Shown: piece after piece, positions 11,564 through 38,549 of the stretch
Layout: the number at the start of each line of letters is the position of its first letter
Numbering within the stretch: position 1 is the first letter of the stretch
The notes under the pieces: model-generated
Database searches by the model: none
What the model saw: the letters and a program-made list of their open reading frames with translations, nothing else
Told to the model about the DNA's origin: nothing
Origin: a virus
Strand: one strand, 5' to 3'
DNA: 39,567 nt
IMG/VR virus record: IMGVR_UViG_3300009104_002189
Coordinates: 1 to 39,567 of that record
Position numbers and translations under genes: made by a program

Positions 11564-12339
11564 AACGATTAATTTTTCAAGTTGCTGTAGGTAAACAAAA
11601 TATATTATATGAAATTTGTATTAAAAGTGTAGCAAATTATTGTAAAAAATTTAATATAGATCATATTATATTAAGGGAACCTAAATTGAGAATTAGACCA
11701 GATTTAAATAGAACGGGTCGTAGTAAAGAAGCAGTTGAACGATTAGGTTACCTTCCTATATTTGAAAAAGAAAATGCATTTGAATATTTAAAACCATACG
11801 ATCAAGTATGTATAGTTGACAGTGACATATACATTAAAGATACTGCACCTAATGTATTTGATGAACTACCACAACAATATGATTTTGGTGGTGTTGTGGA
11901 AAGAGAAATGCCTTTAACAAAAAAATATTTTAACAAAATAAGAAAATATTCTAAAAATGCTTTTCAAAATTTAAAAGACGTTGAATGGGAATGGAACGAT
12001 AATGGAGCAAAATTTATTAATATGGGTTTAATGTTAATGAACAAAAGTATGTTAAAATATCTTAATAATGAAACACCAAAACAATTTCTAACACGTCCAG
12101 AGTTTAAAGACTTTGTTGATGGAGTAGGTTTTTATAAATGGTCAACGGATCAAATGTTATTAAATTGGTGGGTTAAAAAATCACAAATGAATACTAAATT
12201 TTTAGATTGGAAATGGAATGCTTTATATACAGCAGTACACGATTATAAATTAAAAGAAGCACACTTTGTACATTTCTTTTTAAAAGATTTATTACCTAAC
12301 AAAGGAAACGAAATAGAAAGATTATTAAAATTAATATGA
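11560..12339 (+). CDS. GT8-like glycosyltransferase
   Basis: A 259-residue GT-A-type transferase. The N-terminal LIFQVAVGKQNILYEICIKS resembles GT8 openings. VCIVDSDIYIKD holds D-x-D at 87-89. GAKFINMGLMLMNKSML is the GT8 'N.G.....' acceptor segment, and AHFVHFFL near the C-terminus matches the conserved 'H....K' region. WSTDQMLLNWW carries the 'DQ..L' motif. Soluble, no membrane segment. It overlaps the preceding gene by four bases and the following one by four. Retaining GT8 enzymes use UDP-glucose or UDP-galactose and related donors; the true substrate is unknown. Confidence 0.75.
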   Translation: MKRLIFQVAVGKQNILYEICIKSVANYCKKFNIDHIILREPKLRIRPDLNRTGRSKEAVERLGYLPIFEKENAFEYLKPYDQVCIVDSDIYIKDTAPNVFDELPQQYDFGGVVEREMPLTKKYFNKIRKYSKNAFQNLKDVEWEWNDNGAKFINMGLMLMNKSMLKYLNNETPKQFLTRPEFKDFVDGVGFYKWSTDQMLLNWWVKKSQMNTKFLDWKWNALYTAVHDYKLKEAHFVHFFLKDLLPNKGNEIERLLKLI

Positions 12340-13115
12340 TACACATAGTAAACAGAATAATGAGTACTAGAATTCCTAATCTACGTTATACAATGCCAGG
12401 ATTTGGTGATGCAATACATACAATTCTTTTAGCTTACTTGTACGGTAAAGCACATAACGATCAAGTCACAATGCATTTAGACAAAGACAAATACAATAAA
12501 GATAAACCAGGAACCCTTGCTCAATGTATTTCTTTGTTTCCAAAAAATAAAATTTTTGTAGAAGGTCACGACAAGTGGTTTAAAGGAGATAAAGAATTTG
12601 TAGATTATATTACACAACTAAAAGGAAAATGTATTGGACATTATTATAAAGATTTTCCTAATAGTCATAGAGTACAACAAGTAGTAGAACCTTTCTTTTG
12701 GGCTGACGATTATCTTAATGGCGGGTATCCATGTTTACCAGCAGATGATATGAGTCATGAAGTAAAAATACCTAAAAAATTTATAACTGTACAATGGGAC
12801 GCAGGTTCTAAAAACAGAATGCTATCTAGTCAACAAATTTCTGAAATACATGATTCTTTTAAAAAGAAAGGTTATGAAGTTCTTGTAGTTGGTGGACAAG
12901 CTCAAGGAAAATTAAGAAGATCATTAAAACATATAGGGTATGCAATGGCAAATGCAGACTTTCATGTAGGTGTAGATAGTGGCTATATGCATTTAGCTCA
13001 ACTATATTTTAAACCAGAAAACATCTACATATATACTAATAAAAAAGGAAAATGGGAACATCATTTATTAAGATTTCATAAAAACGGTTCCAAAGTTAAC
13101 GAAAAATTTGTATGA
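12336..13115 (+). CDS. GT9/heptosyltransferase-like glycosyltransferase (GT-B)
   Basis: A 259-residue protein with features of ADP-heptose:LPS heptosyltransferases (GT9). An N-terminal glycine-rich PGFGDAIHTILLAYLYGKA (21-39) matches 'G.GD.i...P'. ITVQWDAGSKNRMLSSQQI corresponds to the start of the donor-binding domain. EVLVVGGQAQ and DFHVGVDSGYMHLAQ (208-222) match the C-terminal 'vGvDtG..HLA' motif. It is shorter than cellular enzymes (about 320-350 aa). It overlaps its neighbours by four bases. Together with GT25- and GT8-like genes it suggests assembly of an LPS-core-like or virion glycan. Confidence 0.7.
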   Translation: MIHIVNRIMSTRIPNLRYTMPGFGDAIHTILLAYLYGKAHNDQVTMHLDKDKYNKDKPGTLAQCISLFPKNKIFVEGHDKWFKGDKEFVDYITQLKGKCIGHYYKDFPNSHRVQQVVEPFFWADDYLNGGYPCLPADDMSHEVKIPKKFITVQWDAGSKNRMLSSQQISEIHDSFKKKGYEVLVVGGQAQGKLRRSLKHIGYAMANADFHVGVDSGYMHLAQLYFKPENIYIYTNKKGKWEHHLLRFHKNGSKVNEKFV

Positions 13116-13612
13116 GTATAGACACAATAAATCATAATGGTAATTCTTTTTACAGATTACAAGCCGAAGGTTTTGCTTCAAAATTTGCATTTTCATTTGC
13201 AAAAGAACTTTGTAAAGGCGAAGGATTAGACATTGGTTGTCATAAAAAGGAATGGGCTTTACCTGGAGCTACACCTATAGATAAAATATTTGGTGACGAA
13301 TGGTATGCAGAAAATCTTCCAAACAAAAAATATGATTATATTTTTTCTTCACATTGTTTAGAACATTTAGATGATTGGGTAGGAGCATTAGATTATTGGA
13401 CTGAACATTTAAAAACAGGTGGAGTTATGTTTTTATATTTGCCTCATTATGAACAAACATATTGGCGACCTTGGAATAATAGAAAACATATTCATATACT
13501 AGATCCTAAATATTTAAGAGACTATTTCAAAGCAAGACCTTTTCATAACATATGTGTAACTGATGGATACGATTTAAATTATTCTTTTTACGCTATAGCG
13601 GAGAAAAAATAA
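13112..13612 (+). CDS. Class I SAM-dependent methyltransferase (type 11-like)
   Basis: A 166-residue Rossmann methyltransferase. GEGLDIGCHKKEWALPGATP is motif I, where SAM binds, although the usual GxGxG is altered to GCHKKE. PNKKYDYIFSSHCLEHLDDW is the conserved 'YD.I.....LEH..D' segment, and LKTGGVMFLYLPHYEQTYW is motif III. The same pattern appears in small methyltransferases found in polysaccharide clusters. It overlaps its upstream neighbour by four bases and the downstream ATG by one. Probably an O-methyltransferase acting on a sugar; substrate unknown. Confidence 0.8.
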   Translation: MSIDTINHNGNSFYRLQAEGFASKFAFSFAKELCKGEGLDIGCHKKEWALPGATPIDKIFGDEWYAENLPNKKYDYIFSSHCLEHLDDWVGALDYWTEHLKTGGVMFLYLPHYEQTYWRPWNNRKHIHILDPKYLRDYFKARPFHNICVTDGYDLNYSFYAIAEKK

Positions 13613-14184
13613 TGATGTTCGGTAAAAATCCAGGTACAGATAAAACCTGGATAAGAATTCCTAAAGATAGCATTGGTGCAGAATTAGGTGTATGGCGAGG
13701 AGATAGTTCTGTAAAATTTCTAAACAATGCAAAACACATACATTTAGTAGATAGTTGGAGTACTATACCATATGAAAACTCTGATGAATTTGGTAATTAT
13801 CAAGCCTATCTTGATAGATATTCTATACTTGTAAAGTCTAATAATCCAGAAGATTTTCAAAAATACTATGACAAAATTTATAATAGTGTTGTTGAAAGAT
13901 TTAAAAATAGTCCTGTAACAATTTATCGTATGTCAACTAAAGAATGGTTTGAAAGTTTTAAAGAAAAATTAGATTGGATATATGTAGACGCTAGTCATAG
14001 CTTTGAAGGTTGTTATTATGATTTAATTAATGCTGTAAAATTTATTAAGCCAGGAGGAACTTTATTTGGTGATGATTATGGAGATAAAAAACCAAATGTA
14101 AAAAAAGCCGTAGATAAGTTTATTGCTGATACAGGTTATGAATTTAATAATTTTCATTTAGATCAATTTGAGGTAAAGATATAA
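13612..14184 (+). CDS. SAM-dependent methyltransferase, TylF/MTase_24-like
   Basis: A 190-residue protein. GAELGVWRGDSSVKFL (about 22-37) is motif I, HIHLVDSWSTIP binds the SAM ribose side, and KLDWIYVDASHSFEGCYYDL has the 'D..HsyegvY.Dl' metal/substrate segment of macrocin-type and MTase_24 sugar O-methyltransferases. FIKPGGTLFGDDYGDKKPNV continues the fold with the 'GGD.Y' pattern. TAATG overlaps couple it to both neighbours. Family known for O-methylation of deoxysugars, consistent with a decorated glycan product; the exact position methylated is unknown. Confidence 0.85.
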   Translation: MMFGKNPGTDKTWIRIPKDSIGAELGVWRGDSSVKFLNNAKHIHLVDSWSTIPYENSDEFGNYQAYLDRYSILVKSNNPEDFQKYYDKIYNSVVERFKNSPVTIYRMSTKEWFESFKEKLDWIYVDASHSFEGCYYDLINAVKFIKPGGTLFGDDYGDKKPNVKKAVDKFIADTGYEFNNFHLDQFEVKI

Positions 14185-14729
14185 TGCACCCTACGTCAAT
14201 GGAAAATATGCGTTTAGCAAAAACAAAAATACCTGATCTAGGAAATAATATAACAATAGTAGATGTAGGTGGTAGAGGAACAAAACAAATACCTGTTAGA
14301 TCTTATCAAAAAGTTTTTAAAGACGTATACAAACATTATTACGTTGCTGACATCAATGAAGGTCCTGGTGTTACTCACATTATGCCAGAACAATACAAAT
14401 TACCATTTGCAGATAATTCAATAGATTTAGTAGTATCTGGGCAAACATTAGAACACGTAAGGAACCCTTTTAAAATGATGACTGAAATAAAAAGAATTAT
14501 AAAACCAAATAGATATATGATAATAATAGCACCAAGCACAGGACCAAATCATGATGATATAGATTGTTGGCGTTTCATGGCTAACAGTTTTGAATCAATA
14601 GCTCAGGAATGTAATATTAAATTTATTGAATCTTGGATAACAAATGATGCTGTTTGTGATAAAAAAAGTTATAGATTTGAAAGTAGACGAAATATTTGGT
14701 CAGATCATACATTCATAGGACAAAAATAA
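14184..14729 (+). CDS. Class I SAM-dependent methyltransferase
   Basis: A 181-residue protein with ITIVDVGGRGTKQIPV (motif I), HYYVADINEGPGVTHIM (acidic loop) and YKLPFADNSIDLVVSGQTLE followed by HV (motif II, 'LPF.d.s.D.v.s...leHv'). RIIKPNRYMIIIAPSTGPN follows. This is the canonical type-11 layout. The C-terminal half (DCWRFMANSFESIAQE) is typical of methyltransferases in surface-glycan clusters. It is the third of four consecutive methyltransferase genes here. No membrane segment; start overlaps the previous stop by one base. Confidence 0.85.
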   Translation: MHPTSMENMRLAKTKIPDLGNNITIVDVGGRGTKQIPVRSYQKVFKDVYKHYYVADINEGPGVTHIMPEQYKLPFADNSIDLVVSGQTLEHVRNPFKMMTEIKRIIKPNRYMIIIAPSTGPNHDDIDCWRFMANSFESIAQECNIKFIESWITNDAVCDKKSYRFESRRNIWSDHTFIGQK

Positions 14730-15430
14730 TGATAATGTCAAACAAAGATGCGGCGGAATGGCAAAAACAATTAGACAAATTACAAATGTCTACTTTAAAT
14801 GAATTGTTTTTAAAACATAAATGCCTTAAAGGTATAGACCTAAAATATGATGAAATTTATGAAGCTGACTTTAAAAAATTAAGAAATGAACCAATTAATA
14901 TATTAGAAATAGGTGTAGATCAAGGACGAAGTATAGCTGTTTGGTTAGATTATTTTCCTAATGCTAAAATTTATGCTATAGATATTTTTACAAGAATGCA
15001 TGAATCTCGTATTAAATCTCTTAAAGACAACAGAGTACAATATTTAAAAATAGACAGCACTCACCCAGATGTACACAATCAAGTTGCACAATGGAAAACT
15101 GAATTTGATATTGTAATAGATGATGGTAGACATACTCCCGAAGCAAATGCATTAACATTTAAAAGCATTGCTCCTTTTTTAAAACCAAATGGCATATATT
15201 ACATAGAAGATATTTGGCCTATAGATCAAATGACTAAACCAGATCTTAAAAATTTAGGATTTGATTTTAAAAAACAAATAGCTTGGGCTCAAAAATATCG
15301 TAAAAATGAATTTACAAAAGGGAAATGGACAATGTTTATTAATACTCTTAAAGGATATAAAATTGAAAAATTTGATCATAGAAAAAGATGTAAACTATTA
15401 GATAGTTACATTTATAAAATTACAAAATGA
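14729..15430 (+). CDS. SAM-dependent methyltransferase, mycinamicin/demethylmacrocin type
   Basis: Starts at 14729, overlapping the previous stop (TAATG); ATG 14735 is an alternative. The 233-residue protein has NILEIGVDQGRSIAVWLDYF (motif I), AKIYAIDIFTRM, and FDIVIDDGRHTPEANALTFK. The last carries the D-D-G-x-H segment that binds metal in MycE-like and demethylmacrocin O-methyltransferases. IAPFLKPNGIYYIEDIWPID matches the 'l.pGG.y.ieDl' element. Such enzymes O-methylate sugars. It overlaps the GT25-like gene downstream by four bases, and sits in a run of four methyltransferases. Confidence 0.85.
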   Translation: MIMSNKDAAEWQKQLDKLQMSTLNELFLKHKCLKGIDLKYDEIYEADFKKLRNEPINILEIGVDQGRSIAVWLDYFPNAKIYAIDIFTRMHESRIKSLKDNRVQYLKIDSTHPDVHNQVAQWKTEFDIVIDDGRHTPEANALTFKSIAPFLKPNGIYYIEDIWPIDQMTKPDLKNLGFDFKKQIAWAQKYRKNEFTKGKWTMFINTLKGYKIEKFDHRKRCKLLDSYIYKITK

Positions 15431-16095
15431 AAGCATTTATAATAACAATTTTAGATAATGAAAGTAGTATTGCCTACAGCAATAATGTTATTAAATCAAT
15501 AAAAGAAACAAATTCTGATTTAGAACCTATTGTTTATCCTGCTGTTACTCCTGCAACAATGTGGAAAATTGATTGGACATGGCCCTGGCACAAAAAGAAA
15601 ATTTGTGAAAAAACAAAATTATTATTAAAGCCGTACAAAACATATGATATGAATAAAAGAATTGCCGCGGCAGGAAGTCATTATAACTTATGGAAAAAAT
15701 GTGTTGAATTAAATGAACCAATAATAGTTTGTGAACACGATGCATACTTTACTAGAAAATTTACACCCTTTGATTTTGAAGGAGGTTGTTTAGGATTAAA
15801 TGATCCTGCAAAAGCTACACCAAAAGCAGAACTTTTCCATGAGACATTAAAAAATTTAGGAGAAGGAGTACACGATGCACCTTGGGTAATGAAGAAAGAA
15901 ATACCACAAGGAATGGCGGGCAATAGTACATTTATTATAAAACCTTGGGCCGCAAAAGAAATAATTAAAGCACAAGATGAAATTGGTTGGTGGCCAAATG
16001 ATGCCATAACTTGCAAACAACTTTTTCCATGGATTAAAGTTGTATATCCATACTACACTAGAGTACAAAACATCAAATCAACTACATCATTATAA
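15427..16095 (+). CDS. Second GT25-like glycosyltransferase
   Basis: A 222-residue protein with FIITILDNESSIAYSNNVIK at the N-terminus and RIAAAGSHYNLWKKCVELNE, the 'G.iGC..SH..lw' equivalent of family 25. PIIVCEHDAYFTRKF carries the E-H-D motif. GNSTFIIKPWAAKEI corresponds to the late 'aY.is..aA' segment. It is a divergent relative of the gene at 10988. It ends nine bases before a late-type promoter box, so it probably closes the first transcription segment of the glycan block. Confidence 0.65.
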   Translation: MKAFIITILDNESSIAYSNNVIKSIKETNSDLEPIVYPAVTPATMWKIDWTWPWHKKKICEKTKLLLKPYKTYDMNKRIAAAGSHYNLWKKCVELNEPIIVCEHDAYFTRKFTPFDFEGGCLGLNDPAKATPKAELFHETLKNLGEGVHDAPWVMKKEIPQGMAGNSTFIIKPWAAKEIIKAQDEIGWWPNDAITCKQLFPWIKVVYPYYTRVQNIKSTTSL

Positions 16096-16103
16096 AATTG
16101 GTT

Positions 16104-16111
16104 AATAAATA
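16104..16111 (+). promoter_or_regulatory. Internal T4-type late promoter of the glycan block
   Basis: AATAAATA within TTAATAAATATT in a 27-base gap. Expected +1 at about 16117 leaves a 6-nt leader before the epimerase ATG at 16123; no Shine-Dalgarno. Confidence 0.55.
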
Positions 16112-16122
16112 TTGGTAGTCCA

Positions 16123-16839
16123 ATGAAAATATTAATAACAGGTAATAAAGGTTTTATAGGTTCAGAACTTTCTAAAAGATTGGAAGAAAAAAATCATAAA
16201 ATTTTTGGTATAGACATTAAAGACGGAAAAAATATATTTACGGCAGAATTACCAGAAGTAGATTTAGTAATTCATTTAGCCGCTATAGGAGGAGTACGTG
16301 AATCAATGTCTGATCCTAAAAAATACTGGGATATGAACGTAGAAGGAACTAGAAAAATTTTAGAACATTATCAAAAAACAAGAGTGTTATATGCAGGTTC
16401 AAGTTCACAATATGAACCACATTTAAATCCATATGCCGCTACAAAAAATGTAATTGAATACATACCTCATCCTAATTCAGTATGTATGAGATTTCATACA
16501 GTTTATTCTAAAACACCTAGATTTAATATGTTCTTTGACAAATTATTAAATGGAAAATTAGAATATGTTACCAATCATAAAAGAGATTTTATTCATGTAG
16601 AAGATTTGTGTAGTGCAATATTATGTATTATAGACAATCCATTTTTTAAAGGACCTCTTGATATAGGCACTGGACAAAATATTAGAATAAGAGATATAGC
16701 ACCTAATTTACCTGTAAAAGAAATAACATTGGGAGAACGTGAAGAAACTTTAGCTGACCTTACTAAAATAAAATCTTTAGGATGGAAACCTAAATGGACA
16801 GTACAAAAATTTTTAAGCGAGGAGGGATTTGATTTATGA
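16123..16839 (+). CDS. NAD-dependent sugar-nucleotide epimerase/dehydratase (extended SDR)
   Basis: A 238-residue extended SDR. ILITGNKGFIGSEL has the dinucleotide-binding GxxGxxG (7-13). LVIHLAAIGGVRESM is the HxAA motif. YAGSSSQYEPHLNPYAATKN supplies the catalytic Ser region and Y104-x3-K108. RDFIHVEDLCSAI is the conserved 'RDFv.V.D....' segment, and GPLDIGTGQNIRIRDI follows. At 238 aa it is shorter than GalE-type enzymes (about 320-340), mainly in the C-terminal substrate domain. It probably interconverts nucleotide sugars for the neighbouring transferases. It overlaps the cupin gene by four bases. Confidence 0.85.
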   Translation: MKILITGNKGFIGSELSKRLEEKNHKIFGIDIKDGKNIFTAELPEVDLVIHLAAIGGVRESMSDPKKYWDMNVEGTRKILEHYQKTRVLYAGSSSQYEPHLNPYAATKNVIEYIPHPNSVCMRFHTVYSKTPRFNMFFDKLLNGKLEYVTNHKRDFIHVEDLCSAILCIIDNPFFKGPLDIGTGQNIRIRDIAPNLPVKEITLGEREETLADLTKIKSLGWKPKWTVQKFLSEEGFDL

Positions 16840-17207
16840 AGCAAGGAAAAATTTGGGGACAAACAGAATTAATACACGCAAATGGTGTATTAGAATTCCA
16901 TAGAATAGATTTTAAGAAAAATGTACAATGCTCTAAACATAAACACAAATATAAATGGAATGGCTTCTATGTTGTTTCAGGTAAGTTAATGGTAAAAGTT
17001 TGGAAAACTGACCAAGGATTAATAGATGAAACAATACTTAAAGCAGGAGATTGGACAAGAATTAAACCTGGAGAATATCATCAATTTATAGGATTACAAG
17101 ATGGTGTTGCTTTTGAATTATATTGGGCACAATTTGATCATGATGATATAGAAAGAGCAAACGCTGGTCAACGGGTTAATGAAGATATAGACAGAACAAA
17201 TGATTAA
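16836..17207 (+). CDS. Cupin-domain protein (mannose-6-phosphate isomerase-like)
   Basis: A 123-residue single cupin. The first motif includes SKHKHKYKWNGFYVVSGKL (H35, H37, then the Gly after the strand), and the second is GDWTRIKPGEYHQFIGL (P78-G79, H82). These are the metal-binding residues of the beta-barrel. The family includes sugar-phosphate isomerases and dTDP-sugar epimerases or isomerases, which fits its place between an epimerase and a glycosyltransferase. It overlaps its neighbours by four and eight bases. Substrate not determinable. Confidence 0.75.
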   Translation: MKQGKIWGQTELIHANGVLEFHRIDFKKNVQCSKHKHKYKWNGFYVVSGKLMVKVWKTDQGLIDETILKAGDWTRIKPGEYHQFIGLQDGVAFELYWAQFDHDDIERANAGQRVNEDIDRTND

Positions 17208-17877
17208 CATTTTTATAGGATATGATAGCAAAGAAACAGTAGCGTTCAATATACTATCGTATAGTATATTAAAAAATAGTACTAGACCTGTTGCTATTAC
17301 TCCAGTTAACTTACAAAATATAAAAGATAATTTTACTAGAGAACGAAGTAATATAGAATCTACAGAATTTAGTTTTAGTAGATTTATTGTTCCTCACTTA
17401 ATGAATTATAAAGGGTGGGCTTTGTTTATGGATTGTGATCAATTAATGTTAGCAGATGTGGCAGAGCTATGGAGATTAAGAGATGAAAGATATGCTGTAC
17501 AAGTATGCAAACACGATTATATACCAAGAGCTGATAAGAAATTTTTAGGACAAGTACAAACAAAATACGAAAAGAAAAATTGGTCAAGTTTTATGTTAAT
17601 GAATTGTGATAAGTGTACAGCACTAACACCTGACTATGTTAATACTGCTACAGGATTACAATTACACCAATTTAAATGGTTAGCAGATGAAAATCTAATA
17701 GGTGATTTGCCTTTAGAATGGAATTGGTTAGCTGGAGAATATCCACGAAAAGATAATGTTAAAAATGTACATTATACTGAAGGCGGACCTTGGTATGTAG
17801 ATTATTTGCAATCTGATTATGCAAATGAATGGCAACAATATTTTGACGAAGCCACTAAAAGGAATATGAACAAATAA
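17200..17877 (+). CDS. GT8-like glycosyltransferase
   Basis: A 225-residue GT-A protein. INIFIGYDSKETVAFNILSY is the typical opening of this phage/bacterial GT8-related group. FSRFIVPHLMNYKGWALFMD continues into CDQL, giving D-x-D at 78-80. NWSSFMLMNCDKCTALTPDY is the 'sS..l.N' segment and WNWLAGEYP followed by HYTEGGPWYVDY is the C-terminal 'W....g.......H.t.GgPw' element. These features are sharp enough for a confident family call. Donor and acceptor are unknown. It begins inside the end of the cupin gene. Confidence 0.85.
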   Translation: MINIFIGYDSKETVAFNILSYSILKNSTRPVAITPVNLQNIKDNFTRERSNIESTEFSFSRFIVPHLMNYKGWALFMDCDQLMLADVAELWRLRDERYAVQVCKHDYIPRADKKFLGQVQTKYEKKNWSSFMLMNCDKCTALTPDYVNTATGLQLHQFKWLADENLIGDLPLEWNWLAGEYPRKDNVKNVHYTEGGPWYVDYLQSDYANEWQQYFDEATKRNMNK

Positions 17878-30504: not shown

Positions 30505-31527
30505 ATGATAATATGGGGAATAACAGGTAATAGTCACGATGCAAGTTTATCCGTGATGAAGTGGAGTCCGAATGGTTTAACGGATCATTATAAACTTAAA
30601 CTGCTTTGGGCAGGACTGTCTAGAGACTTTAGTGGTAAACCAGGTGATCCAAGTTTAAGTGGCAAGATGTTAGCTTATGTTAGATCAAATCCTAGATGGG
30701 CTTTCCCGGCAAAAATTATTTGGTATGAAAAACCTTTTTTAAAAAGTTTACGACAGTTATGGGCAGGTCAAGGATTATTATTTCAAGAAAATAATATTAA
30801 GAAATATCTAGCTAAAGCAGGTATTCATAAAGTTCCAATCGAATATGCAAAACATCATCACAGTCATGCGGCTTACGGATATTTTACAGCACCTTTTATT
30901 GAAAGAAATGCCGCAATAGTTGTACTAGATAGTATAGGAGAATTTCAAACATTTACTATATGGCATGGTAAAAGACATCATTTAAAACAAGTATACTCAC
31001 AAAGATATCCTCATAGTGTTGGATTATTTTATAGTGCAATGACTCAACGAGTAGGATTTAAACCAAACGCAGAAGAATATAAAACAGAACAACTTGCTAA
31101 AAAAGGTAACTGGAGAGTTCACTATAGAAAATTTATGGAAGAATTAGTTGATACTAGAATGCCTTTTAGATTAAGAGAAAATTTACATCGGGGAGCTAAT
31201 TGGTGGAGACCTGAACTAACGTCAGAAGAAGATTTAGCCAATATAGCCGCAACTACTCAACATATTTTTGAATTGACTTTAGTTAGTATTAGTGGATGGT
31301 GCCAAACAAATATTAAAGCTGATAATGTAGTTTTTGTAGGTGGTTGTGCATTAAACAAAACTGCTATTAGTAAATTACAACATATATGGGATGACATTTG
31401 GATTCCACCAAATCCGGGTGATCCAGGCTCTTGTATTGGTTCTGTTCTAACAAGGTATCCAAAACACCTTGACTTTGATCCCGATGTATGGTACAATAAG
31501 GATAATGGAAAAATCAAGACAAAATAA
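30505..31527 (+). CDS. Compact carbamoyltransferase (NodU/CmcH N-terminal domain)
   Basis: A 340-residue protein of the carbamoyltransferase family. IWGITGNSHDASLSV is the N-terminal motif. EYAKHHHSHAAYGYFTAPF gives the metal/active-site His cluster ('dHH..HA'), and VLDSIGEFQTFTIWHGK the phosphate/nucleotide-loop region. VFVGGCALNKTAISKL and PNPGDPGSCIGSVL match 'GG.alN' and 'p..gD.G.aiG'. NodU and CmcH are about 500-600 aa with a C-terminal carbamoyl-adenylate domain, which appears absent or greatly reduced. Such enzymes carbamoylate sugars or antibiotics. I recall relatives in cyanophages near primase and helicase. It carries the helicase promoter in its last codons. Confidence 0.8.
   Translation: MIIWGITGNSHDASLSVMKWSPNGLTDHYKLKLLWAGLSRDFSGKPGDPSLSGKMLAYVRSNPRWAFPAKIIWYEKPFLKSLRQLWAGQGLLFQENNIKKYLAKAGIHKVPIEYAKHHHSHAAYGYFTAPFIERNAAIVVLDSIGEFQTFTIWHGKRHHLKQVYSQRYPHSVGLFYSAMTQRVGFKPNAEEYKTEQLAKKGNWRVHYRKFMEELVDTRMPFRLRENLHRGANWWRPELTSEEDLANIAATTQHIFELTLVSISGWCQTNIKADNVVFVGGCALNKTAISKLQHIWDDIWIPPNPGDPGSCIGSVLTRYPKHLDFDPDVWYNKDNGKIKTK
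31469..31497 (+). promoter_or_regulatory. Sigma70 promoter of helicase gp41, within the carbamoyltransferase 3' end
   Basis: TTGACT at 31469-31474, a 17-bp spacer and TACAAT at 31492-31497. The gp41 ATG at 31505 begins after seven bases, at the expected +1. It is the third element in the window with this architecture. AAGGAT lies just before the ATG, but too near for a normal leader. Confidence 0.75.
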
Positions 31528-32934: not shown

Positions 32935-33423
32935 ATGAGATTATATAAAAACAAAAGATCCAATATACATAGGAATGGCTTGTCTGCCTCTACTAATATT
33001 AAAAAAGGTCAAAGAATTATCCAGTATAAAGGAAAGAAAATTAGTCACGATAAAGCAGAAACAGATCCAAAGTATGATAACGATAAAGAGATTTACTTGT
33101 TTAATTTAAACAAACAGTACGATCTTGATGGTGATTTTAAATTTAATACTGCTCGATTAATAAATCATTCCTGTAATCCTAACTGTGAAGTTTTTGATTA
33201 TAACAGACAATTATGGATTTTTGCTATAAAGAATATTAAAAAAGACGAAGAGTTAACTTATGATTATGGGTTTAGTTTTGATAAAACAGACTACAAACAA
33301 TACCCTTGTAAGTGTGGATCATCTAATTGCGTAGGTTATATTGTTCGAGAGGGATCAAGATGGCGAATAAGCCGCGAAGCGGTCGTCCGCCAGAAAGTAA
33401 GCAGTCGCGAAGCGACGCGGTAG
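32935..33423 (+). CDS. SET-domain protein lysine methyltransferase
   Basis: A 162-residue protein with a compact SET domain. It begins with SNIHRNGLSASTNIKKGQRI (SET-N), has FNTARLINHSCNPNCEVF (NHSCxPN at 77-83) and KDEELTYDYGFSF with Y109/Y111 of the catalytic 'ELTYDY'. A post-SET zinc cluster KQYPCKCGSSNCVGYI follows: C125, C127, C132 plus C80. All substrate/SAM signature residues are present, with no pre-SET. Family members methylate lysines on histones or other proteins. The last 20 residues are encoded by a GC-rich inverted-repeat region and may be a tail of little importance. It is two bases after gp41. Confidence 0.85.
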   Translation: MRLYKNKRSNIHRNGLSASTNIKKGQRIIQYKGKKISHDKAETDPKYDNDKEIYLFNLNKQYDLDGDFKFNTARLINHSCNPNCEVFDYNRQLWIFAIKNIKKDEELTYDYGFSFDKTDYKQYPCKCGSSNCVGYIVREGSRWRISREAVVRQKVSSREATR

Positions 33424-33482
33424 CATTCGGTAAACAGATTTTATATGATTTTTCTTTTGACGCCTGCACGTTTAACGTCTAA
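33360..33482 (+). CDS. Possible overlapping 40-aa AT-hook-like micro-protein
   Basis: A different frame inside the SET gene opens with a strong Shine-Dalgarno (GAGAGGG at 33347-33353, six bases before the ATG at 33360). It has 40 codons: MANKPRSGRPPESKQSRSDA, then VAFGKQILYDFSFDACTFNV. KPRSGRPPE resembles an AT-hook core (GRP flanked by basic residues). Its second half overlaps the convergent amidinotransferase gene. This is a candidate, not a certain gene. Confidence 0.4.
   Translation: MANKPRSGRPPESKQSRSDAVAFGKQILYDFSFDACTFNV
33372..33416. repeat. Two GCGAAGC mini-hairpins at a convergent gene junction
   Basis: CCGC-GAA-GCGG at 33372-33382 and GTCGC-GAA-GCGAC at 33404-33416. Each contains GCGAAGC, the heptamer known for forming an exceptionally stable DNA mini-hairpin with a sheared G-A loop. 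They lie in a conspicuous GC-rich patch at the end of the SET gene, next to the 3' end of the opposing minus-strand operon. They may act as transcription or replication-fork signals, or as terminators on either strand; no T-run is adjacent. Confidence 0.6.
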
Positions 33483-34505
33483 TGTACTACAATGTATTCC
33501 ACCATCCCAATACAAATAATGACGTTGCTCCACTACGTGGCAATCGATGTGCAAGGACTTTAGTTTTTCAAACAATTTAGGTATGTGTCTTGCAAACACA
33601 ATATTGTTTCTATCTAATATTAATACGTTTAAATCAAAGCAAACTTCTTGACTGTACCCTCTCCAATTCTCTAAATACTTGTCTAACCAAGCAACATCCA
33701 TTTTATCTCGTGCTTTAGCATAGTCTTGAATATACCTATCCATTTTTAATTCGGGCAAACAATCACTAACATCTATTAATTTTTTGTTATGCAAACACTT
33801 AGGCACCCAATCCATTCCAGCATGAATTACTGTTTCATCATCTATCATAATAAAGCCGTGGTCAATGTGTCCAAACTCTTTAACTCGTGTACCTTCGTTA
33901 CTAATAAATCTATATTCAGGTAGCTCACGCTTACACCACTCTAATCCAGTTTGACTTCCAGGACCTCGTGTATTAACAATAAATGCATCGCCCGCCTTAA
34001 ACATTGTAGCTGTATGCCACAACACTCTATCAGATAATTTGTCTACATACGTTCTATCACTCATAAACCATTCGTCTGTAGTATTCAAATCCATAAGCAT
34101 AGGGGCTGGTTGACTCATCCAACGATAGCCTTCACGGAATAATTTTTCAAATATTTCATAATAGCTAATAGCATCAAAGTATCTGTCTGTATAACTTGTA
34201 TAAGTTTGCATAATGTTTTTACCCATAACCATATACTGATCTCTTGGTACGATTGGTGCAATTGGTACATTTATGTTGAACTGTGGCATTTTTACAGCAT
34301 TATATTTGTAAACATTAGGACGATATACTTCAACACCCCCTTTTGTAAGAAAGGTTGATAATGCTTCTAAATCTTGTTTAGTTTCTTCTAGGATATGATT
34401 AAATTGTTTAATGTTGCCTTTAGTCAACAAATGATCCACGTCTCCAGGAGAGTACGTGTCTCCTACGATTACAGATTGTAATGGATCATATTCTGTGTAG
34501 ATCAT
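33441..34505 (-). CDS. Arginine:X amidinotransferase (AGAT/StrB pentein family)
   Basis: A 354-residue pentein enzyme that moves the amidino group of arginine to an amine acceptor. It aligns by eye with human glycine amidinotransferase: TATMFKAGDAFIVNTRGPGS with D173, EFGHIDHGFIMI with H213 and YWDGGIHCSTLDVKRAG with nucleophile C339, the counterparts of D254, H303 and C407. FDLNVLILDRNNIVFARHIP corresponds to the conserved 'NVL.ld...v......' strand. All three catalytic residues are present. It is the last gene of a seven-gene minus-strand operon and overlaps the 2OG oxygenase gene by four bases. The acceptor is unknown; glycine, lysine or an aminated sugar are possible. Confidence 0.88.
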   Translation of the reverse strand: MIYTEYDPLQSVIVGDTYSPGDVDHLLTKGNIKQFNHILEETKQDLEALSTFLTKGGVEVYRPNVYKYNAVKMPQFNINVPIAPIVPRDQYMVMGKNIMQTYTSYTDRYFDAISYYEIFEKLFREGYRWMSQPAPMLMDLNTTDEWFMSDRTYVDKLSDRVLWHTATMFKAGDAFIVNTRGPGSQTGLEWCKRELPEYRFISNEGTRVKEFGHIDHGFIMIDDETVIHAGMDWVPKCLHNKKLIDVSDCLPELKMDRYIQDYAKARDKMDVAWLDKYLENWRGYSQEVCFDLNVLILDRNNIVFARHIPKLFEKLKSLHIDCHVVEQRHYLYWDGGIHCSTLDVKRAGVKRKII

Positions 34506-35038
34506 AACATATATCCTTTGTTTATAAAAATTTGTATGCTGTGTCGCACAACATCTTTATTTGTAATTTGTGTTATTGCGTGGGGGAAGTCTTGTGGATT
34601 TAATATTAATCTGTTTGCTATAGGTTCTACAAACTCTCCTGTAGTACTAGTCCAACGATTTTTCCACATAAAGAATCCTCCATCGTTTGGATTCCATTCT
34701 GCATTCATAAAAAATGTAATGCCACAATAGTCTATGTTATCTGTTTTCCAATCTGATAAACGATCACAATGAAAATTTGAATAGTATGGAGCTCTTGTTA
34801 TATGATATCTTACATCAAAGTCTGCTTTGTCCCAATCTATTTTACAAAAGTCTTGTTCTTCTAATTCATTCATAAACATAGTTCTTGCTATACCTTCTAC
34901 ACGATATAACTTAACATTGTCTAATCCTTTATGATCTTCTTCATCACTAGGAAGCTCCATAGGAGCCTTTTCATTTTGTAATGCATCTACAAAGTTTTTA
35001 TAAACTTCTTCGCTTAAAAAGTTATCAACTATTTTCAT
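34502..35038 (-). CDS. Fe(II)/2-oxoglutarate-dependent dioxygenase (prolyl-hydroxylase-like)
   Basis: A 178-residue double-stranded beta-helix oxygenase. The facial triad is FHCDR (H90, D92) and PHAITQI (H153), and RHSIQIF supplies R165 for 2-oxoglutarate. CGITFFMNAEWNPNDGGFFM is the typical 'l..flN..w...dGG.l' of the P4H-like class, and PIANRLILNPQDFPHAI matches 'p...r.vlF....H'. It probably hydroxylates an amino acid or protein side chain. It overlaps the aminotransferase and amidinotransferase genes by four bases on each side, implying coordinated synthesis of the three. Confidence 0.9.
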   Translation of the reverse strand: MKIVDNFLSEEVYKNFVDALQNEKAPMELPSDEEDHKGLDNVKLYRVEGIARTMFMNELEEQDFCKIDWDKADFDVRYHITRAPYYSNFHCDRLSDWKTDNIDYCGITFFMNAEWNPNDGGFFMWKNRWTSTTGEFVEPIANRLILNPQDFPHAITQITNKDVVRHSIQIFINKGYML

Positions 35039-36129
35039 TTTAATTGCTCCTTTAAGATGTCAAAGTATTCATCTGTAGCATTAATTGGGATAACAAAAAA
35101 CTGTCTATCCTCTCCTCGTTTAATGTCAAAGATTAATCCAAAGTGTCCTACAATGTCATATCCAGCTTCTTTAAAAATATGAATTGCTCGTTCTTTTAAT
35201 GTAAAATGAAATTCAAATGGCATTTCTTCGTGCAACAAGTCTATGTATTTTAATGTACTTAAGATACCTGCTTGACTAAAATTGTATGTAAATCCATGTT
35301 CCCAATCAAAATTATCAGGGATCACTTCATCTATTCGTTGTCCATACATAGTAGCACTCAACGGAAAAAAGCCTGCTGTTATGGCTTTACCCATCGTGAA
35401 TATATCGGGCTTGACAGGCAATTTATACCATCCGACAAAACTGCCTGTCTTGCCTCCCCCTATAAAGATGTCATCAAGTATTAACACAACTCCTTGTTTT
35501 TGAAGTTGAGTTAACTTGTTCCAAAATTGTTCAGTGTTGGGTTGCAACGTCTGACTATAAGAACAAGTTTCTACAATGATACACATCACTTCGCTCCAAT
35601 CGATGCTGGAGATATCGAAGTCCTTTTTTAATTTGATGACTTGGTCATACGGTTTAAGCGTATAAAAAGGATCACCAAACAAACCGTCTCCCAGGTTGTA
35701 ATTTAAAAATGTACTACCGTGGTAACTGTTTTCAAAGCACACAATCTTTGTGCGTTTGTTTTGTCCTACAATTTTTTGATATGCTGAAGCTAATTTAATT
35801 GCTCCTTCGTTAGCGTCACTGCCACTTAATGCAAATATACTTTTATATCCACACATTTGAAACAGTTGATCCGCTAACATATAACTGGAATCATTCAAAT
35901 ATAAATTTTCGTTTCTTACAATACTTTCTGCTATTTCGGGTTTTATTTGCATATTTTTGTGGACGTAATCTAATATGTCTGGTCTATTAAACCCTAATAA
36001 AAAACAACCATAGTGCAACAAAGGATCAATAATTTTTTTATTATCTTTAATATAGCCGTATTGCCAATGCGGCTTGGCTACATTAGTTAATTGTTGTGGC
36101 CCGGGTATTAATCCTTTTAAATGTTTCAC
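35035..36129 (-). CDS. Class III (fold type I) PLP-dependent aminotransferase
   Basis: A 364-residue aminotransferase (usual length about 420-450 aa; loops are shortened). SIFALSGSDANEGAIKLASA is the 'SGSEANE.AiKlA' cofactor phosphate region, and FENSYHGSTF the 'nyYHG.T' motif. VVLILDDIFIGGGKTGSFVG gives D219 (LxxDE-type) and 'G.gRtG'. PDIFTMGKAITAGFFPLSA places the Schiff-base lysine at K248. The family includes ornithine, GABA and GSA aminotransferases. It could aminate a carbonyl to provide the amine acceptor for the adjacent amidinotransferase, as in streptidine-type pathways, though this link is inferred. No transmembrane segment. Confidence 0.9.
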   Translation of the reverse strand: MKHLKGLIPGPQQLTNVAKPHWQYGYIKDNKKIIDPLLHYGCFLLGFNRPDILDYVHKNMQIKPEIAESIVRNENLYLNDSSYMLADQLFQMCGYKSIFALSGSDANEGAIKLASAYQKIVGQNKRTKIVCFENSYHGSTFLNYNLGDGLFGDPFYTLKPYDQVIKLKKDFDISSIDWSEVMCIIVETCSYSQTLQPNTEQFWNKLTQLQKQGVVLILDDIFIGGGKTGSFVGWYKLPVKPDIFTMGKAITAGFFPLSATMYGQRIDEVIPDNFDWEHGFTYNFSQAGILSTLKYIDLLHEEMPFEFHFTLKERAIHIFKEAGYDIVGHFGLIFDIKRGEDRQFFVIPINATDEYFDILKEQLK

Positions 36130-36134
36130 TTATT

Positions 36135-36671
36135 CTATTCTATTCTTATTTCTATTTGGTCGTATGTTATATTGTTGTTTCCTTCAAATGCTTTTTTTGA
36201 TTCTAATTTTATGTCAATAGGTTGTTGTGCAATTATAGGATGAGCTAAATTTACTTGTTTAAAATCTCCTTTATGAAATTCTTTATCCAACATAGATACA
36301 TTATCATTAATTTGCAACTTAACATAATAATCTTCTATTAAATTTTCACTTCCTCCTACAAAGTTTTTTCTATCAAACATTGTATTAATAACATTAGTAG
36401 CTGGGTCAATTGTAAATTTAACAATAACCTTTTCATTACTAGCATTAAATTTTATATCATAGTCTAACACCAATTTACTTGGCGAATCATCTGACATTTC
36501 TACTTGTTTGCTTTCTGTAATTGGCAACAGTTCTTCTGCATCATTTATATTTTTGAATACAACATTGTTATTAAATGAAATATTCAAGTTGTTTTCGTAC
36601 CCGTGATCTGCCTTGGAAAAATATCTTTTTCCATCTTCTTTAGGGCACGTAAGTCTTATCGTTCTATTCAT
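36135..36671 (-). CDS. Beta-rich protein of the amidinotransferase operon, unknown
   Basis: A 178-residue acidic protein without a recognised domain. Alternating strands include LNISFNNNVVFKNI, LVLDYDIKFNASNEKVIVKF, YYVKLQINDNVSML and HPIIAQQPIDIKLESKK. Segment order KFTID...FDRKNF...YYVKLQINDN...D.E...G.F resembles the protein at 37388, suggesting distant paralogues. No Cys or His cluster, signal peptide or membrane segment. It could be a binding or scaffold subunit for the neighbouring enzymes or a virion component. It lies five bases upstream of the aminotransferase and overlaps the next oxygenase by eight bases. Confidence 0.65.
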   Translation of the reverse strand: MNRTIRLTCPKEDGKRYFSKADHGYENNLNISFNNNVVFKNINDAEELLPITESKQVEMSDDSPSKLVLDYDIKFNASNEKVIVKFTIDPATNVINTMFDRKNFVGGSENLIEDYYVKLQINDNVSMLDKEFHKGDFKQVNLAHPIIAQQPIDIKLESKKAFEGNNNITYDQIEIRIE

Positions 36672-37401
36672 ATACTACCTCCTTAAAAAGTTCTAGAGCT
36701 TCATTAAAACTTAAATGTTCTCCTGTATTATTTAATATTGTAAATGATAATGTCCACCTACTTTGACCAGCATCAGGGTTATATGTGTCATGCAATTGAC
36801 CTACGTTCATTAAACTAGGTTTATCTATAACTGCTTCATGTACTAAATCTAAATCTTCTTTATTAGCACTATAACACTTATAACAGTCTATATCAGGTAC
36901 GACACCAGCTTCTTCTAACCCTTTATTAACTTCTGTCGTATCATGTACAATTTCTTTCAACTTACTTTCATCTTTAACTCTCCACCATCGTGTAACACTA
37001 TTACTAGGACCCCAAGTAAAATTAATTTTACAAGCGTCTTTTATGTCTGGTTTAATTGTTGTATCATTATGCACTGGAATACTACCATTTGTTTTTGTAA
37101 AAAATCCTTCTACTACATTACTAACTTTTAAATTATATTTGCTTAACCAGTCTATAAAATCTTGTTGCACAACATCTTTACCCATATATGTTATAAAATT
37201 ATTTTCTAAATCTTTTTCAAACATTTTAGGTTTATTAAACACAACAGGTAATTTTAAATATCTATGATAAATGTTTTTTGCAATATTAATTCTTTTACCA
37301 TGTGATATCATATCCGGAGCGTAAATTACTTTCTCCCCAAAACCTGCTTCTCGATGTTTACGATAAGCCGCCATTCTTTCAAAATAATTATCTTCGCTCA
37401 T
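36664..37401 (-). CDS. Putative Fe(II)/2OG oxygenase-like protein
   Basis: A 245-residue protein. GSIPVHNDTTIKPDI gives an H-x-D (H111, D113). NVGQLHDTYNPDAGQSRWTL gives H204 and R215 with 'R-x-x-x-S-F', the arrangement of aspartyl/asparaginyl-hydroxylase-like beta-helix enzymes. The core also has CKINFTWGPSNSVTRWWRV. The N-terminal ~100 residues are helical and basic. The order H-x-D, H, R is as expected for Fe(II)/2OG binding. Whether it is active, and on what, is unknown. The gene overlaps its neighbours by 14 and 8 bases. Confidence 0.65.
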   Translation of the reverse strand: MSEDNYFERMAAYRKHREAGFGEKVIYAPDMISHGKRINIAKNIYHRYLKLPVVFNKPKMFEKDLENNFITYMGKDVVQQDFIDWLSKYNLKVSNVVEGFFTKTNGSIPVHNDTTIKPDIKDACKINFTWGPSNSVTRWWRVKDESKLKEIVHDTTEVNKGLEEAGVVPDIDCYKCYSANKEDLDLVHEAVIDKPSLMNVGQLHDTYNPDAGQSRWTLSFTILNNTGEHLSFNEALELFKEVVYE

Positions 37402-37978
37402 TTATTGTCCACTTAACTCCTTGTGTAAATGTAGAATTTTTATTTGTACTACCATAACCATATTCTTCTATTTCAAAAACTAAAGGAGTATTATTGTTCC
37501 ATTCAAAAACTTTAGTAGCTCTATAAAGTTGTCCTGCTTTTATTTCTTGATCAACAATAAGTTTTTCATTATTAAATTTAAAATGAAATTTTTCACAACC
37601 TATTCCAAACTTATCATTAAAAGAATTTAAATCATTTTCAGGTACATCACCTACGTCTAATGTAAAATTTATTTTCCATTTTCCATTAGATGATTGTAAT
37701 TGCATTAATGCAGAAAGTTCTATTTGTTCTTCGTCTTGTACCCAACGTTGTGTGTTTATTAAATTTAATATATTACTTTCTTTTATTTCTATATCTGCTG
37801 TTCTTTGTATTGATCCTTTATCCATTTGTTCTTTAGATAATTCTATAGTAGGCCAACACTCTACATCATTCCAATATGTAGATAATAAATCTTGTAAGGA
37901 TCCTTCCTCTATTAAAGGATTTTTAACATCATCCGATCTATGTATAGGCCAATAATCAAATTGTAATTGCTTTATCAT
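37388..37978 (-). CDS. Beta-rich protein of the amidinotransferase operon, unknown
   Basis: A 196-residue protein with an N-terminal IKQLQFDYWPIHRSDDVKNP, helical SLQDLLSTYWNDVECW, then strands WKINFTLDVGDVPENDLNSF, CEKFHFKFNNEKLIVDQEIK and PLVFEIEEYGYGSTNKNSTF. The strand-rich C-terminal half has the same order as the protein at 36135. No catalytic motif is evident. Close spacing (three bases after the first oxygenase, 14-base overlap with the next) places it in the same operon. It may be a partner or binding subunit. Confidence 0.6.
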   Translation of the reverse strand: MIKQLQFDYWPIHRSDDVKNPLIEEGSLQDLLSTYWNDVECWPTIELSKEQMDKGSIQRTADIEIKESNILNLINTQRWVQDEEQIELSALMQLQSSNGKWKINFTLDVGDVPENDLNSFNDKFGIGCEKFHFKFNNEKLIVDQEIKAGQLYRATKVFEWNNNTPLVFEIEEYGYGSTNKNSTFTQGVKWTINERR

Positions 37979-37981
37979 ATT

Positions 37982-38530
37982 TTAATAAAAATGATGATAT
38001 TTAATTCTTTCATCATCTATTTTTTCTCCTATAAAATGATATATGTATTTGATTTGTTTTCCAATATTAAATCCACAATGTTCTGCATCTATTTTATTCC
38101 ATTGATATACAGCACCTTGTTCTTCCATATGATAACAATCTTTTTCAACAATTAATGTACTACCCATACAAGGATTTGATATATGACAATGATATCTAAC
38201 AAAACTATCTTTTGGTTGATCGCCCAACACTTCATTTATTTCTTGATCATCAATATGAGGTGGAACACAATATCCTGTTTTCATTTCGCTAATCCAACAC
38301 ATAACAGGTTTGGCATTTAACCAATTGCCAAAATCTTTATTAACATTGCCAAAACCATCATGAAAGGTTTCAAAATCTATTATATTGGCAACATTCTTAA
38401 AGGCTGTTTCAATTTGTATTTTGTCTTTATAATCTGAAGGAGTTGACTCGTATTGACGTTTTACACCGTCAAGATTTTTGATTATCTGATTCCAATCGAC
38501 TTGGATAAATTTTCCAATATATTTCTTCAT
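37982..38530 (-). CDS. Fe(II)/2OG oxygenase-like protein, first gene of the late minus-strand operon
   Basis: Start chosen at 38530 (182 residues), 11 bases after a late box; an earlier in-frame ATG at 38572 would begin upstream of that box. CWISEMKTGYCVPPHIDDQE gives H92-x-D94, and IDAEHCGFNIGKQIKYIYHF gives H151 with a basic residue after it, as in aspartyl/asparaginyl hydroxylases and related beta-helix enzymes. VRYHCHISNPCMGSTLIVEK corresponds to the middle strands ('R.h..i..p......v'). It leads the operon and so is expressed first. Substrate unknown. Confidence 0.7.
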   Translation of the reverse strand: MKKYIGKFIQVDWNQIIKNLDGVKRQYESTPSDYKDKIQIETAFKNVANIIDFETFHDGFGNVNKDFGNWLNAKPVMCWISEMKTGYCVPPHIDDQEINEVLGDQPKDSFVRYHCHISNPCMGSTLIVEKDCYHMEEQGAVYQWNKIDAEHCGFNIGKQIKYIYHFIGEKIDDERIKYHHFY

Positions 38531-38541
38531 AGGGGTAAAAA

Positions 38542-38549
38542 TATTTATG
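38542..38549 (-). promoter_or_regulatory. T4-type late promoter of the minus-strand operon
   Basis: On the minus strand CATAAATA, one mismatch from TATAAATA. Expected +1 at about 38536 gives a leader of about six bases to the ATG at 38530, without a Shine-Dalgarno. It is the only promoter-like element seen upstream of the seven overlapping genes. Confidence 0.6.

What the first reader, a model, noticed from the sequence alone, without database searches (positions are those of the whole stretch)
33441..38549. Seven-gene late minus-strand operon pairing an amidinotransferase with an aminotransferase and 2OG oxygenases
Seen: seven closely spaced or overlapping minus-strand genes behind one late box (38542-38549), all antisense to the flanking replication genes. 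Established: the amidinotransferase has the D/H/C triad of AGAT-type enzymes (D173, H213, C339), the aminotransferase has its PLP lysine (K248), and the 34502 oxygenase has the H-x-D, H, R set. Inference: amination followed by amidination is the logic of streptidine-type pathways, so the phage may build a guanidino compound or attach one to a glycan, virion protein or DNA base, with hydroxylation steps. The three genes 33441/34502/35035 overlap by four bases each, so they are made together. Late expression points to the virion or envelope rather than early takeover.
Basis: partly seen in the sequence, partly recalled or inferred. Interest (0 to 1): 0.85.

Follow-up and report, generated by a model that had tools for sequence, protein, structure and literature searches.

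The report
Phage operon that likely adds guanidine
Uncultured marine viruses of bacteria carry a late-type gene set whose enzymes look able to oxidise a molecule, turn the new spot into an amine and then into a positively charged guanidine group; the gene set is real and kept together across many viruses, but what it decorates is unknown.

Summary
Seven minus-strand genes (33441-38530) follow a late-type box (38542-38549). The amidinotransferase (AT) is placed firmly (profile E 9.8e-49 to HsvA, 7.6e-37 AGAT, 1.2e-35 StrB1, 7.1e-35 SxtG). The aminotransferase (PLP) is class III (Pfam 6.2e-34). Three genes, not one, carry a 2OG-Fe(II) oxygenase signature; one is backed by a predicted fold. The other two are small proteins, one modelled as a beta-sandwich.

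The genes are co-inherited: in dereplicated viral contigs AT follows PLP on the same strand in 35 of 36 groups, and 37 of 39 AT groups hold an OG34- or OG36-type oxygenase in the fetched loci. The cassette looks accessory: AT-less helicase relatives exist, though that sample is capped and biased.

Best reading: an oxidise, aminate, amidinate cassette that builds a guanidinium on a scaffold late in infection. The scaffold is open. A glycan is favoured by glycosyltransferases and a carbamoyltransferase in the same window; a polyamine by SpeD decarboxylases near AT in 8 of 39 groups and by similarity to HsvA. Streptidine-pathway membership is not supported. Campylobacter phage clusters of radical SAM genes plus an amidinotransferase (2010) are the closest published parallel I found.

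The parts
33441..34505 (-). amidinotransferase (AT), AGAT/StrB1/HsvA/SxtG type
   Evidence: phmmer and profile matches to solved amidinotransferases; R88 D89 D173 H213 D215 C339 identical in the window and its 15 marine contig relatives in alignment A1
34502..35038 (-). 2OG-Fe(II) oxygenase (OG34); overlaps AT by 4 bases
   Evidence: PF13640 E 1.8e-4, below its curated cut-off; H90/D92/H153/R165 in 16 of 16
35035..36129 (-). class III PLP aminotransferase (PLP), GTG start; overlaps OG34 by 4 bases
   Evidence: PF00202 6.2e-34, over cut-off; K248, D219, D220 in 17 of 17
36135..36671 (-). beta-sandwich protein (B36), function unknown
   Evidence: AlphaFold2 pLDDT 93.8; Ig-, arrestin- and C2-like beta-sandwich matches, no clear family
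36664..37401 (-). 2OG-Fe(II) oxygenase (OG36); close homologues lack about 40 N-terminal residues
   Evidence: model of the homologue L005:2971-3582 (95% identical), pLDDT 93.9; the 8 PDB matches at E 0.001 or better are 2OG or cupin enzymes, TM about 0.3-0.4; HxD...H...R in 27 of 27
37388..37978 (-). small protein (B37), function unknown
   Evidence: 28 viral loci; an OG37-type gene lies upstream on the same strand, starting within about 1.8 kb, in 26; the other two begin within 630 bases of a contig end
37982..38530 (-). probable 2OG-Fe(II) oxygenase (OG37), first gene of the operon
   Evidence: H92/D94/H151 in 11 of 11; no 2OG family match in Pfam
38542..38549 (-). T4-type late promoter box CATAAATA
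   Evidence: 9 of 10 ATAAATA sites of the window lie just before gene starts; identical box before the same gene in L005, L007, L041
10988..17877 (+). glycan-type genes in the same window (context, not part of the operon): two GT25, GT9- and GT8-like genes under cut-off, NAD epimerase, cupin, four methyltransferases
   Evidence: 11560 in between gave no Pfam family
30505..31527 (+). NodU/Nol-type carbamoyltransferase between primase and helicase (context)
   Evidence: PF02543 2.1e-32; phrog_1601 1.4e-26

Best explanation
The operon is a biosynthetic cassette with a late-type promoter that installs a guanidinium group on a scaffold. Proposed order: one or more 2OG-Fe(II) oxygenases (37982, 36664, 34502) oxidise a carbon of the scaffold; the class III aminotransferase (35035) converts the resulting carbonyl to a primary amine; the amidinotransferase (33441) moves the amidino group of arginine onto that amine, releasing ornithine. 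Shown by sequence or model: enzyme classes, catalytic residues, late box, co-inheritance. Inferred: the order of steps, the coupling of amine to amidination, and that the product is attached to a glycan or a virion component. A phage-encoded glycan is the scaffold I think most likely (about one in three); polyamine and protein (for example the beta-sandwich 36135) come next.
For: AT placement and intact residues. PLP upstream of AT on the same strand within 800 bases in 35 of 36 dereplicated viral groups with at least 1.5 kb upstream; the exception, L095, is adjacent but inverted. An OG34- or OG36-type oxygenase in the fetched loci of 37 of 39 AT groups. AT and PLP distances correlate, r 0.838, 0 of 2000 permutations as high, 35 groups. 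The gene before AT (PLP or OG34) overlaps it by 4 or 28 bases in 30 of 39 groups. The OG36 model matches 2OG enzymes, among them KanJ, EvdO2, AviO1 and a lysine hydroxylase. Campylobacter phage clusters pair a putative amidinotransferase with five radical SAM genes, another way to functionalise C-H bonds (PMC2853527, passages). Glycan context: window genes and carbamoyltransferase; Synechococcus phage S-SCSM2R AT relative beside KdsA, KdsB, a glycosyltransferase and two 2OG genes; bacterial AT relative in L133 next to a polysaccharide deacetylase and near NeuB and UDP-GlcNAc 2-epimerase genes.
Against: Outside the window's clade, 14 records with AT hold GT25 in none and carbamoyltransferase in one, so AT-PLP does not need them. 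No glycosyltransferase lies inside the operon. PLP stands without AT in 13 of 49 groups, so PLP can serve another purpose. The aminotransferase has no invariant arginine, so its donor and acceptor are uncertain. No substrate has been shown for any of these proteins.
Confidence: 0.5

Rival explanations
1. Polyamine branch: the amidinotransferase guanidinylates a diamine or polyamine (agmatine-like product) to tune DNA packaging, translation or virion charge; SpeD-type decarboxylases make or pull on the same pool (ornithine or arginine).
For: Best solved relative of AT is HsvA, titled a polyamine amidinotransferase in a reference entry that I saw. A SpeD (PF02675, 1.7e-13 in L044) lies within two genes of AT in 8 of 39 AT groups; in four of them (L044, L047, L050, L055) the SpeD gene overlaps AT by 4 bases. 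The SpeD copies printed lack the proline that follows the tryptophan in the solved AdoMet decarboxylases; PMC10407285 says that a conserved proline marks true AdoMet decarboxylases (section 7; its position in the figure I could not see). Some marine phage SpeD are arginine or ornithine decarboxylases (PMC9992855, part of section 6).
Against: No SpeD in the window or in the 13 other records of its clade. By record SpeD is not enriched with AT: 7 of 28 records with AT in the fetched locus, 3 of 14 without. It leaves the conserved oxygenases unexplained.
Confidence: 0.2
2. Protein modification: the oxygenases hydroxylate a side chain of a virion protein, perhaps the small proteins encoded beside them, and PLP and AT convert it to an arginine-like group.
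For: Oxygenases are paired with small proteins (OG37-type gene upstream of B37 in 26 of 28 loci; OG36 next to B36 in several clades); late box; the OG36 model also matches protein hydroxylases NO66, MINA53 and PHD2; radical SAM and Trp halogenase-like genes near the cassette in some relatives.
Against: The clade of L043-L047, L050 and L055 has OG36-PLP-AT without B36. I know of no class III aminotransferase or AGAT-type enzyme that acts on proteins (recalled, not searched).
Confidence: 0.15
3. Host-takeover metabolism: PLP consumes the ornithine released by AT, or AT makes guanidinoacetate for a creatine-type route.
For: PLP is most like argD, bioA and omega-amino acid aminotransferases. A survey reports guanidinoacetate N-methyltransferase enriched 85.4-fold in ocean viruses (PMC11360552, passage).
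Against: No invariant arginine for a carboxylate; late-type box; fixed oxygenases. I did not search the loci for that methyltransferase.
Confidence: 0.1
4. DNA base hypermodification with an amino or guanidino group.
For: Such phage base modifications exist as a class (recalled). PHROGs labels the family matched by 13612 DNA methyltransferase (2.4e-14), though Pfam gives Methyltransf_24.
Against: No other base-modification enzyme was recognised among the window genes scanned, which were not all of them; late-type box of the operon.
Confidence: 0.05

Closest known systems
Campylobacter phages CP220 and CPt10, radical SAM plus amidinotransferase clusters (PMC2853527)
   Same: phage cluster joining a putative amidinotransferase to several enzymes that functionalise C-H bonds; the authors call it an interchangeable module
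   Different: radical SAM instead of 2OG oxygenases; no aminotransferase annotated in the 17 kb I saw of CP220; AT only 26-29% identical and N at the aligned H213
HsvA of the phevamine pathway (PDB 5wpi)
   Same: best-scoring solved amidinotransferase; same catalytic motif
   Different: substrate of the phage enzyme untested; the HsvA papers were not held
Streptomycin-type streptidine pathway (StrB1, PDB 1bwd)
   Same: amination then amidination logic; AT family
   Different: sugar aminotransferases there are DegT type (recalled); absent from the window's clade
Synechococcus phage S-SCSM2R glycine amidinotransferase locus (PQ898602)
   Same: AT relative next to two 2OG oxygenases in a marine phage
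   Different: sits with KdsA, KdsB and a glycosyltransferase; no aminotransferase among the 36 features shown; D89, D173 and H213 differ in the alignment, which is gapped there
Virus-encoded polyamine metabolism (PMC9992855)
   Same: SpeD-type decarboxylases in marine phages, as near AT in some relatives
   Different: the word amidinotransferase does not occur in its main text
Sponge oroidin genes (PMC12833800, passages)
   Same: amidinotransferase, decarboxylase and a likely halogenase together
   Different: animal alkaloid pathway with cytochromes P450; no 2OG oxygenase or aminotransferase in the passages I saw

Membership tests
AGAT/StrB-type amidinotransferases | sequence similarity over most of the chain to solved members | tested here: met
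   profile A1: HsvA 9.8e-49, AGAT 7.6e-37, StrB1 1.2e-35, SxtG 7.1e-35; the Pfam scan listed no family for this protein at E 1
AGAT/StrB-type amidinotransferases | catalytic Asp, His and Cys | tested here: met
   D173, H213, C339 in the window and its 15 marine contig relatives; pairing of D173 with the solved enzymes needs a one-residue gap (my reading)
AGAT/StrB-type amidinotransferases | amidino transfer from arginine | not testable with these tools
   needs an assay
class III aminotransferases | Pfam Aminotran_3 over cut-off and PLP lysine | tested here: met
   117.8 bits against 30.5; K248 in 17 of 17
class III aminotransferases | arginine that binds the donor carboxylate | tested here: inconclusive
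   no invariant Arg in A2; two columns with Arg in 36 and 40 of 49 groups; no structure
2OG-Fe(II) oxygenases | HxD...H metal triad and Arg | tested here: met
   OG34 16 of 16, OG36 27 of 27; OG37 triad 11 of 11, its Arg or Lys not settled
2OG-Fe(II) oxygenases | 2OG-oxygenase fold (OG36) | tested here: met
   model of a 95% identical homologue; Foldseek best MysH E 1.8e-4, TMq 0.36; VIA-align best Z 9.1, 122 residues, 3.0 A; modest values, but the leading rows are 2OG enzymes
streptidine-type pathway | DegT/EryC1 sugar aminotransferase (recalled as the type) | tested here: not met
   PF01041 in 5 of 42 records, none of them the window or the 13 others of its clade; records are fragments
phage SpeD polyamine modules | AdoMet_dc family protein in the locus | tested here: not met
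   none in the window record; near AT only in other clades
Campylobacter phage radical SAM-amidinotransferase modules | radical SAM genes in the cluster | tested here: not met
   no radical SAM family over cut-off among the seven genes (one sub-threshold glyco_rSAM_CFB row for AT at E 0.1, 11.6 bits against 400)
T4-type late genes | TATAAATA-type box just before the transcript | tested here: met
   CATAAATA at 38542-38549; 9 of 10 ATAAATA sites before starts. Expression itself not tested

The most novel reading that the evidence does not exclude
Marine T4-like phages make a guanidinium decoration on a late product (virion or surface glycan, or a virion protein) by an oxygen-dependent three-step cassette: 2OG oxygenase, class III aminotransferase, amidinotransferase. 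It is the aerobic counterpart of the radical SAM-amidinotransferase clusters of Campylobacter phages.
Probability: 0.25. Interest if true: 0.85.

Novelty: new variant of a known kind. Interest (0 to 1): 0.6.

Why it matters
If the cassette works as proposed, phages would join the organisms that build guanidino groups, possibly to give a virion or glycan a fixed positive charge or to hide it from host defences. It would give some of the many unexplained 2OG oxygenases of marine phages a testable downstream chemistry, and each step can be assayed with enzymes expressed from the sequence.

Tried and rejected
Streptidine-type membership: rejected for lack of DegT aminotransferases in the clade. 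Glycan reading as a strict rule: weakened, because GT25 and carbamoyltransferase do not follow AT outside the window's clade. SpeD as a constant partner: rejected (8 of 39 groups; by record 7 of 28 with AT and 3 of 14 without). Core gene of the helicase lineage: not supported. AT was found in 3 of 55 helicase loci with at least 1.5 kb downstream and in 1 of 22 with at least 5 kb.

B36 and B37 as one family: not shown (hhalign probability 13%); B36 with the protein in the same slot of L132: no support (0.2%). OG36 with OG37 by profile: no support (1.3%). B36 fold: common beta-sandwich matches; best VIA Z 11.1 is to a designed Ig dimer. Late box in relatives: ATAAATA near a start of the operon up to PLP in 17 of 31 groups, but equal-composition sevenmers average 9.5 and the next best has 16, so that test is weak; the window test is the strong one. 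OG36 had no match in the phage collection (tblastn, E 1e-3); AT matched 6 records there.

Rows left out before counts: L001, L002 (pieces of the window), L056, L057 and L133-L140 from the viral groups; AT pieces of 300 bases or less; in the 36-of-49 count PLP hits under 150 bits or 900 bases, which drops the remote PLP of L196-L201. One search returned 80 of 111 candidates. Groups are loci merged when they share sampled exact 400-mers (194 loci, 60 groups). The 42 records were my choice among the loci; the window's clade means G000-G012 and G014 (14 records). Only the neighbours in L133 were scanned with Pfam among the bacterial AT relatives; L136 and L137 were read by eye, the other five not.

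Literature: nine paper searches listed no paper that I recognised as describing this trio. Seen as passages only: PMC11360552, PMC8226683, PMC2853527, PMC6884629, PMC12833800, PMC13123061. PMC10407285: passages and section 7. PMC9992855: abstract, passages and part 1 of section 6.


Full report
What is there. The window is an IMG/VR virus record of 39,567 bases from an uncultured phage with T4-like genes; its terminase is closest, at 53%, to large Pseudomonas phages such as PA5oct. On the minus strand, seven genes run from 38530 to 33441 with overlaps or gaps of at most 14 bases. From 5' to 3': OG37, B37, OG36, B36, PLP, OG34, AT. They converge on a SET-domain gene and the DnaB-like helicase on the plus strand.

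Late box. CATAAATA lies 11 nt before the first ATG. In the window ATAAATA occurs ten times and nine lie within 40 nt upstream of a start in my list of 49 starts; all sevenmers of five A and two T pooled, those ten included, give 57 of 993. The same box precedes the same gene in L005, L007 and L041. In more distant relatives the box is often but not always seen and that test is weak (17 of 31 groups; next best sevenmer 16). Late expression is inferred, not measured.

Enzymes. AT: a profile search of solved structures finds HsvA, AGAT, StrB1 and SxtG at E 1e-34 or better, although the Pfam scan lists nothing for it. The catalytic residues are intact in the window and its 15 marine contig relatives; the Campylobacter phage relative has N at H213 and the Synechococcus phage relative differs at D89, D173 and H213. 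PLP: Aminotran_3 at 6.2e-34, lysine 248 and the neighbouring cofactor-site residues invariant in 17, no invariant arginine. Oxygenases: OG34 by signature and a Pfam match below cut-off; OG36 by signature in 27 of 27 and by a confident model of a 95% identical homologue whose leading structural matches are 2OG and cupin enzymes such as MysH, NO66, KanJ and EvdO2, with modest scores (E 1.8e-4, TM 0.36, Z 9.1); OG37 by an invariant HxD...H in 11. B36 is modelled with pLDDT 93.8 as a beta-sandwich. B37 has no model.

Co-inheritance. Scans of viral contigs with AT, PLP and OG36 gave 194 viral loci in 60 groups after merging loci that share exact 400-mers. AT follows PLP on the same strand in 35 of 36 groups with room to see it; L095 has the two adjacent but opposed. 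PLP has AT within 1.3 kb in 36 of 49. Of 39 AT groups, 37 have an OG34- or OG36-type gene in the fetched loci; the other two are a contig cut at AT (L039) and L116. AT and PLP distances correlate (Mantel r 0.838, 0 of 2000, 35 groups). The gene before AT overlaps it by 4 or 28 bases in 30 of 39 groups. OG37 and B37 form their own unit: an OG37-type gene lies upstream of B37 in 26 of 28 loci, and in some phages this unit faces the OG36-B36-PLP-OG34-AT operon from the other strand.

Clues to the scaffold. For a glycan: between 10988 and 17877 the window holds two GT25 genes, GT9- and GT8-like genes under cut-off, an NAD epimerase, a cupin and four methyltransferases, and a NodU-type carbamoyltransferase at 30505. 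In S-SCSM2R the AT relative sits with KdsA, KdsB, a glycosyltransferase and two 2OG genes. In a Giovannonibacteria genome (L133) the AT relative is beside a polysaccharide deacetylase and near NeuB and a UDP-GlcNAc 2-epimerase. But of 14 AT records outside the window's clade none has GT25 and one has a carbamoyltransferase. For a polyamine: HsvA is the best solved match, and SpeD-type decarboxylases lie within two genes of AT in 8 of 39 groups; the copies printed lack the proline after the tryptophan of the solved AdoMet decarboxylases. The window's clade has no SpeD in the 14 records searched. For a protein: oxygenases paired with small proteins, and the late box. I could not decide; my order is glycan, polyamine, protein.

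Mechanism. The constant genes are oxygenase, aminotransferase and amidinotransferase, often in that order. The simplest chemistry that uses all three is oxidation of a carbon, transamination to an amine, and amidination by arginine. The Campylobacter phages CP220 and CPt10 pair a putative amidinotransferase with five radical SAM genes in clusters that share function but little sequence (PMC2853527, passages), which looks like the same idea with another way to open C-H bonds. This parallel is inference.

Novelty. Amidinotransferase genes in viruses have been listed before (PMC2853527; a KEGG entry in a table of PMC8226683), and guanidinoacetate methyltransferase has been reported as enriched in ocean viruses (PMC11360552). 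My nine searches listed no paper that I recognised as describing the trio. I rate it a new variant of a known kind, a phage-carried modification cassette.

Noticed in passing
window 30505-31527; records G002, G008, G009: A short NodU-type carbamoyltransferase sits between primase and helicase; PF02543 is in all 14 records of the window's clade searched, and the three longest also hold an open frame of 603-617 aa with the family elsewhere.
   Followed up: partly
window 10988-17877 (genes without Pfam match continue to 21325): A run of plus-strand glycan-type genes with glycosyltransferases, an NAD epimerase and four methyltransferases in a phage genome.
   Followed up: partly
window 32935-33423: A SET-domain protein gene (PF00856 1.8e-23) convergent with the operon, found in 8 of the first 53 AT loci.
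   Followed up: no
L005:5208-6004: The OG34 slot holds an 87-aa piece at 90% identity to the window gene followed by a different 2OG-type gene at 25%, as if one oxygenase had replaced another in place.
   Followed up: no
L082:3025-5451: Four OG36-type oxygenase genes in tandem before B36, PLP, OG34 and AT.
   Followed up: no
L114:3354-4913; L112 and L118 loci: A Trp halogenase-like gene (PF04820 4.9e-93) upstream of the cassette, with SpeD and genes clustering with radical SAM families nearby.
   Followed up: partly
L050:6855-7652, L043:5544-6359: SpeD fused to a domain with a CPFA motif; the domain alone (L031:6732-7169) has no Pfam match and stands next to AT in other loci.
   Followed up: no
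window 34502-35038: The weakly matching PHROGs family phrog_274 is named DNA endonuclease V although the gene has a full 2OG signature; the label may mislead.
   Followed up: no
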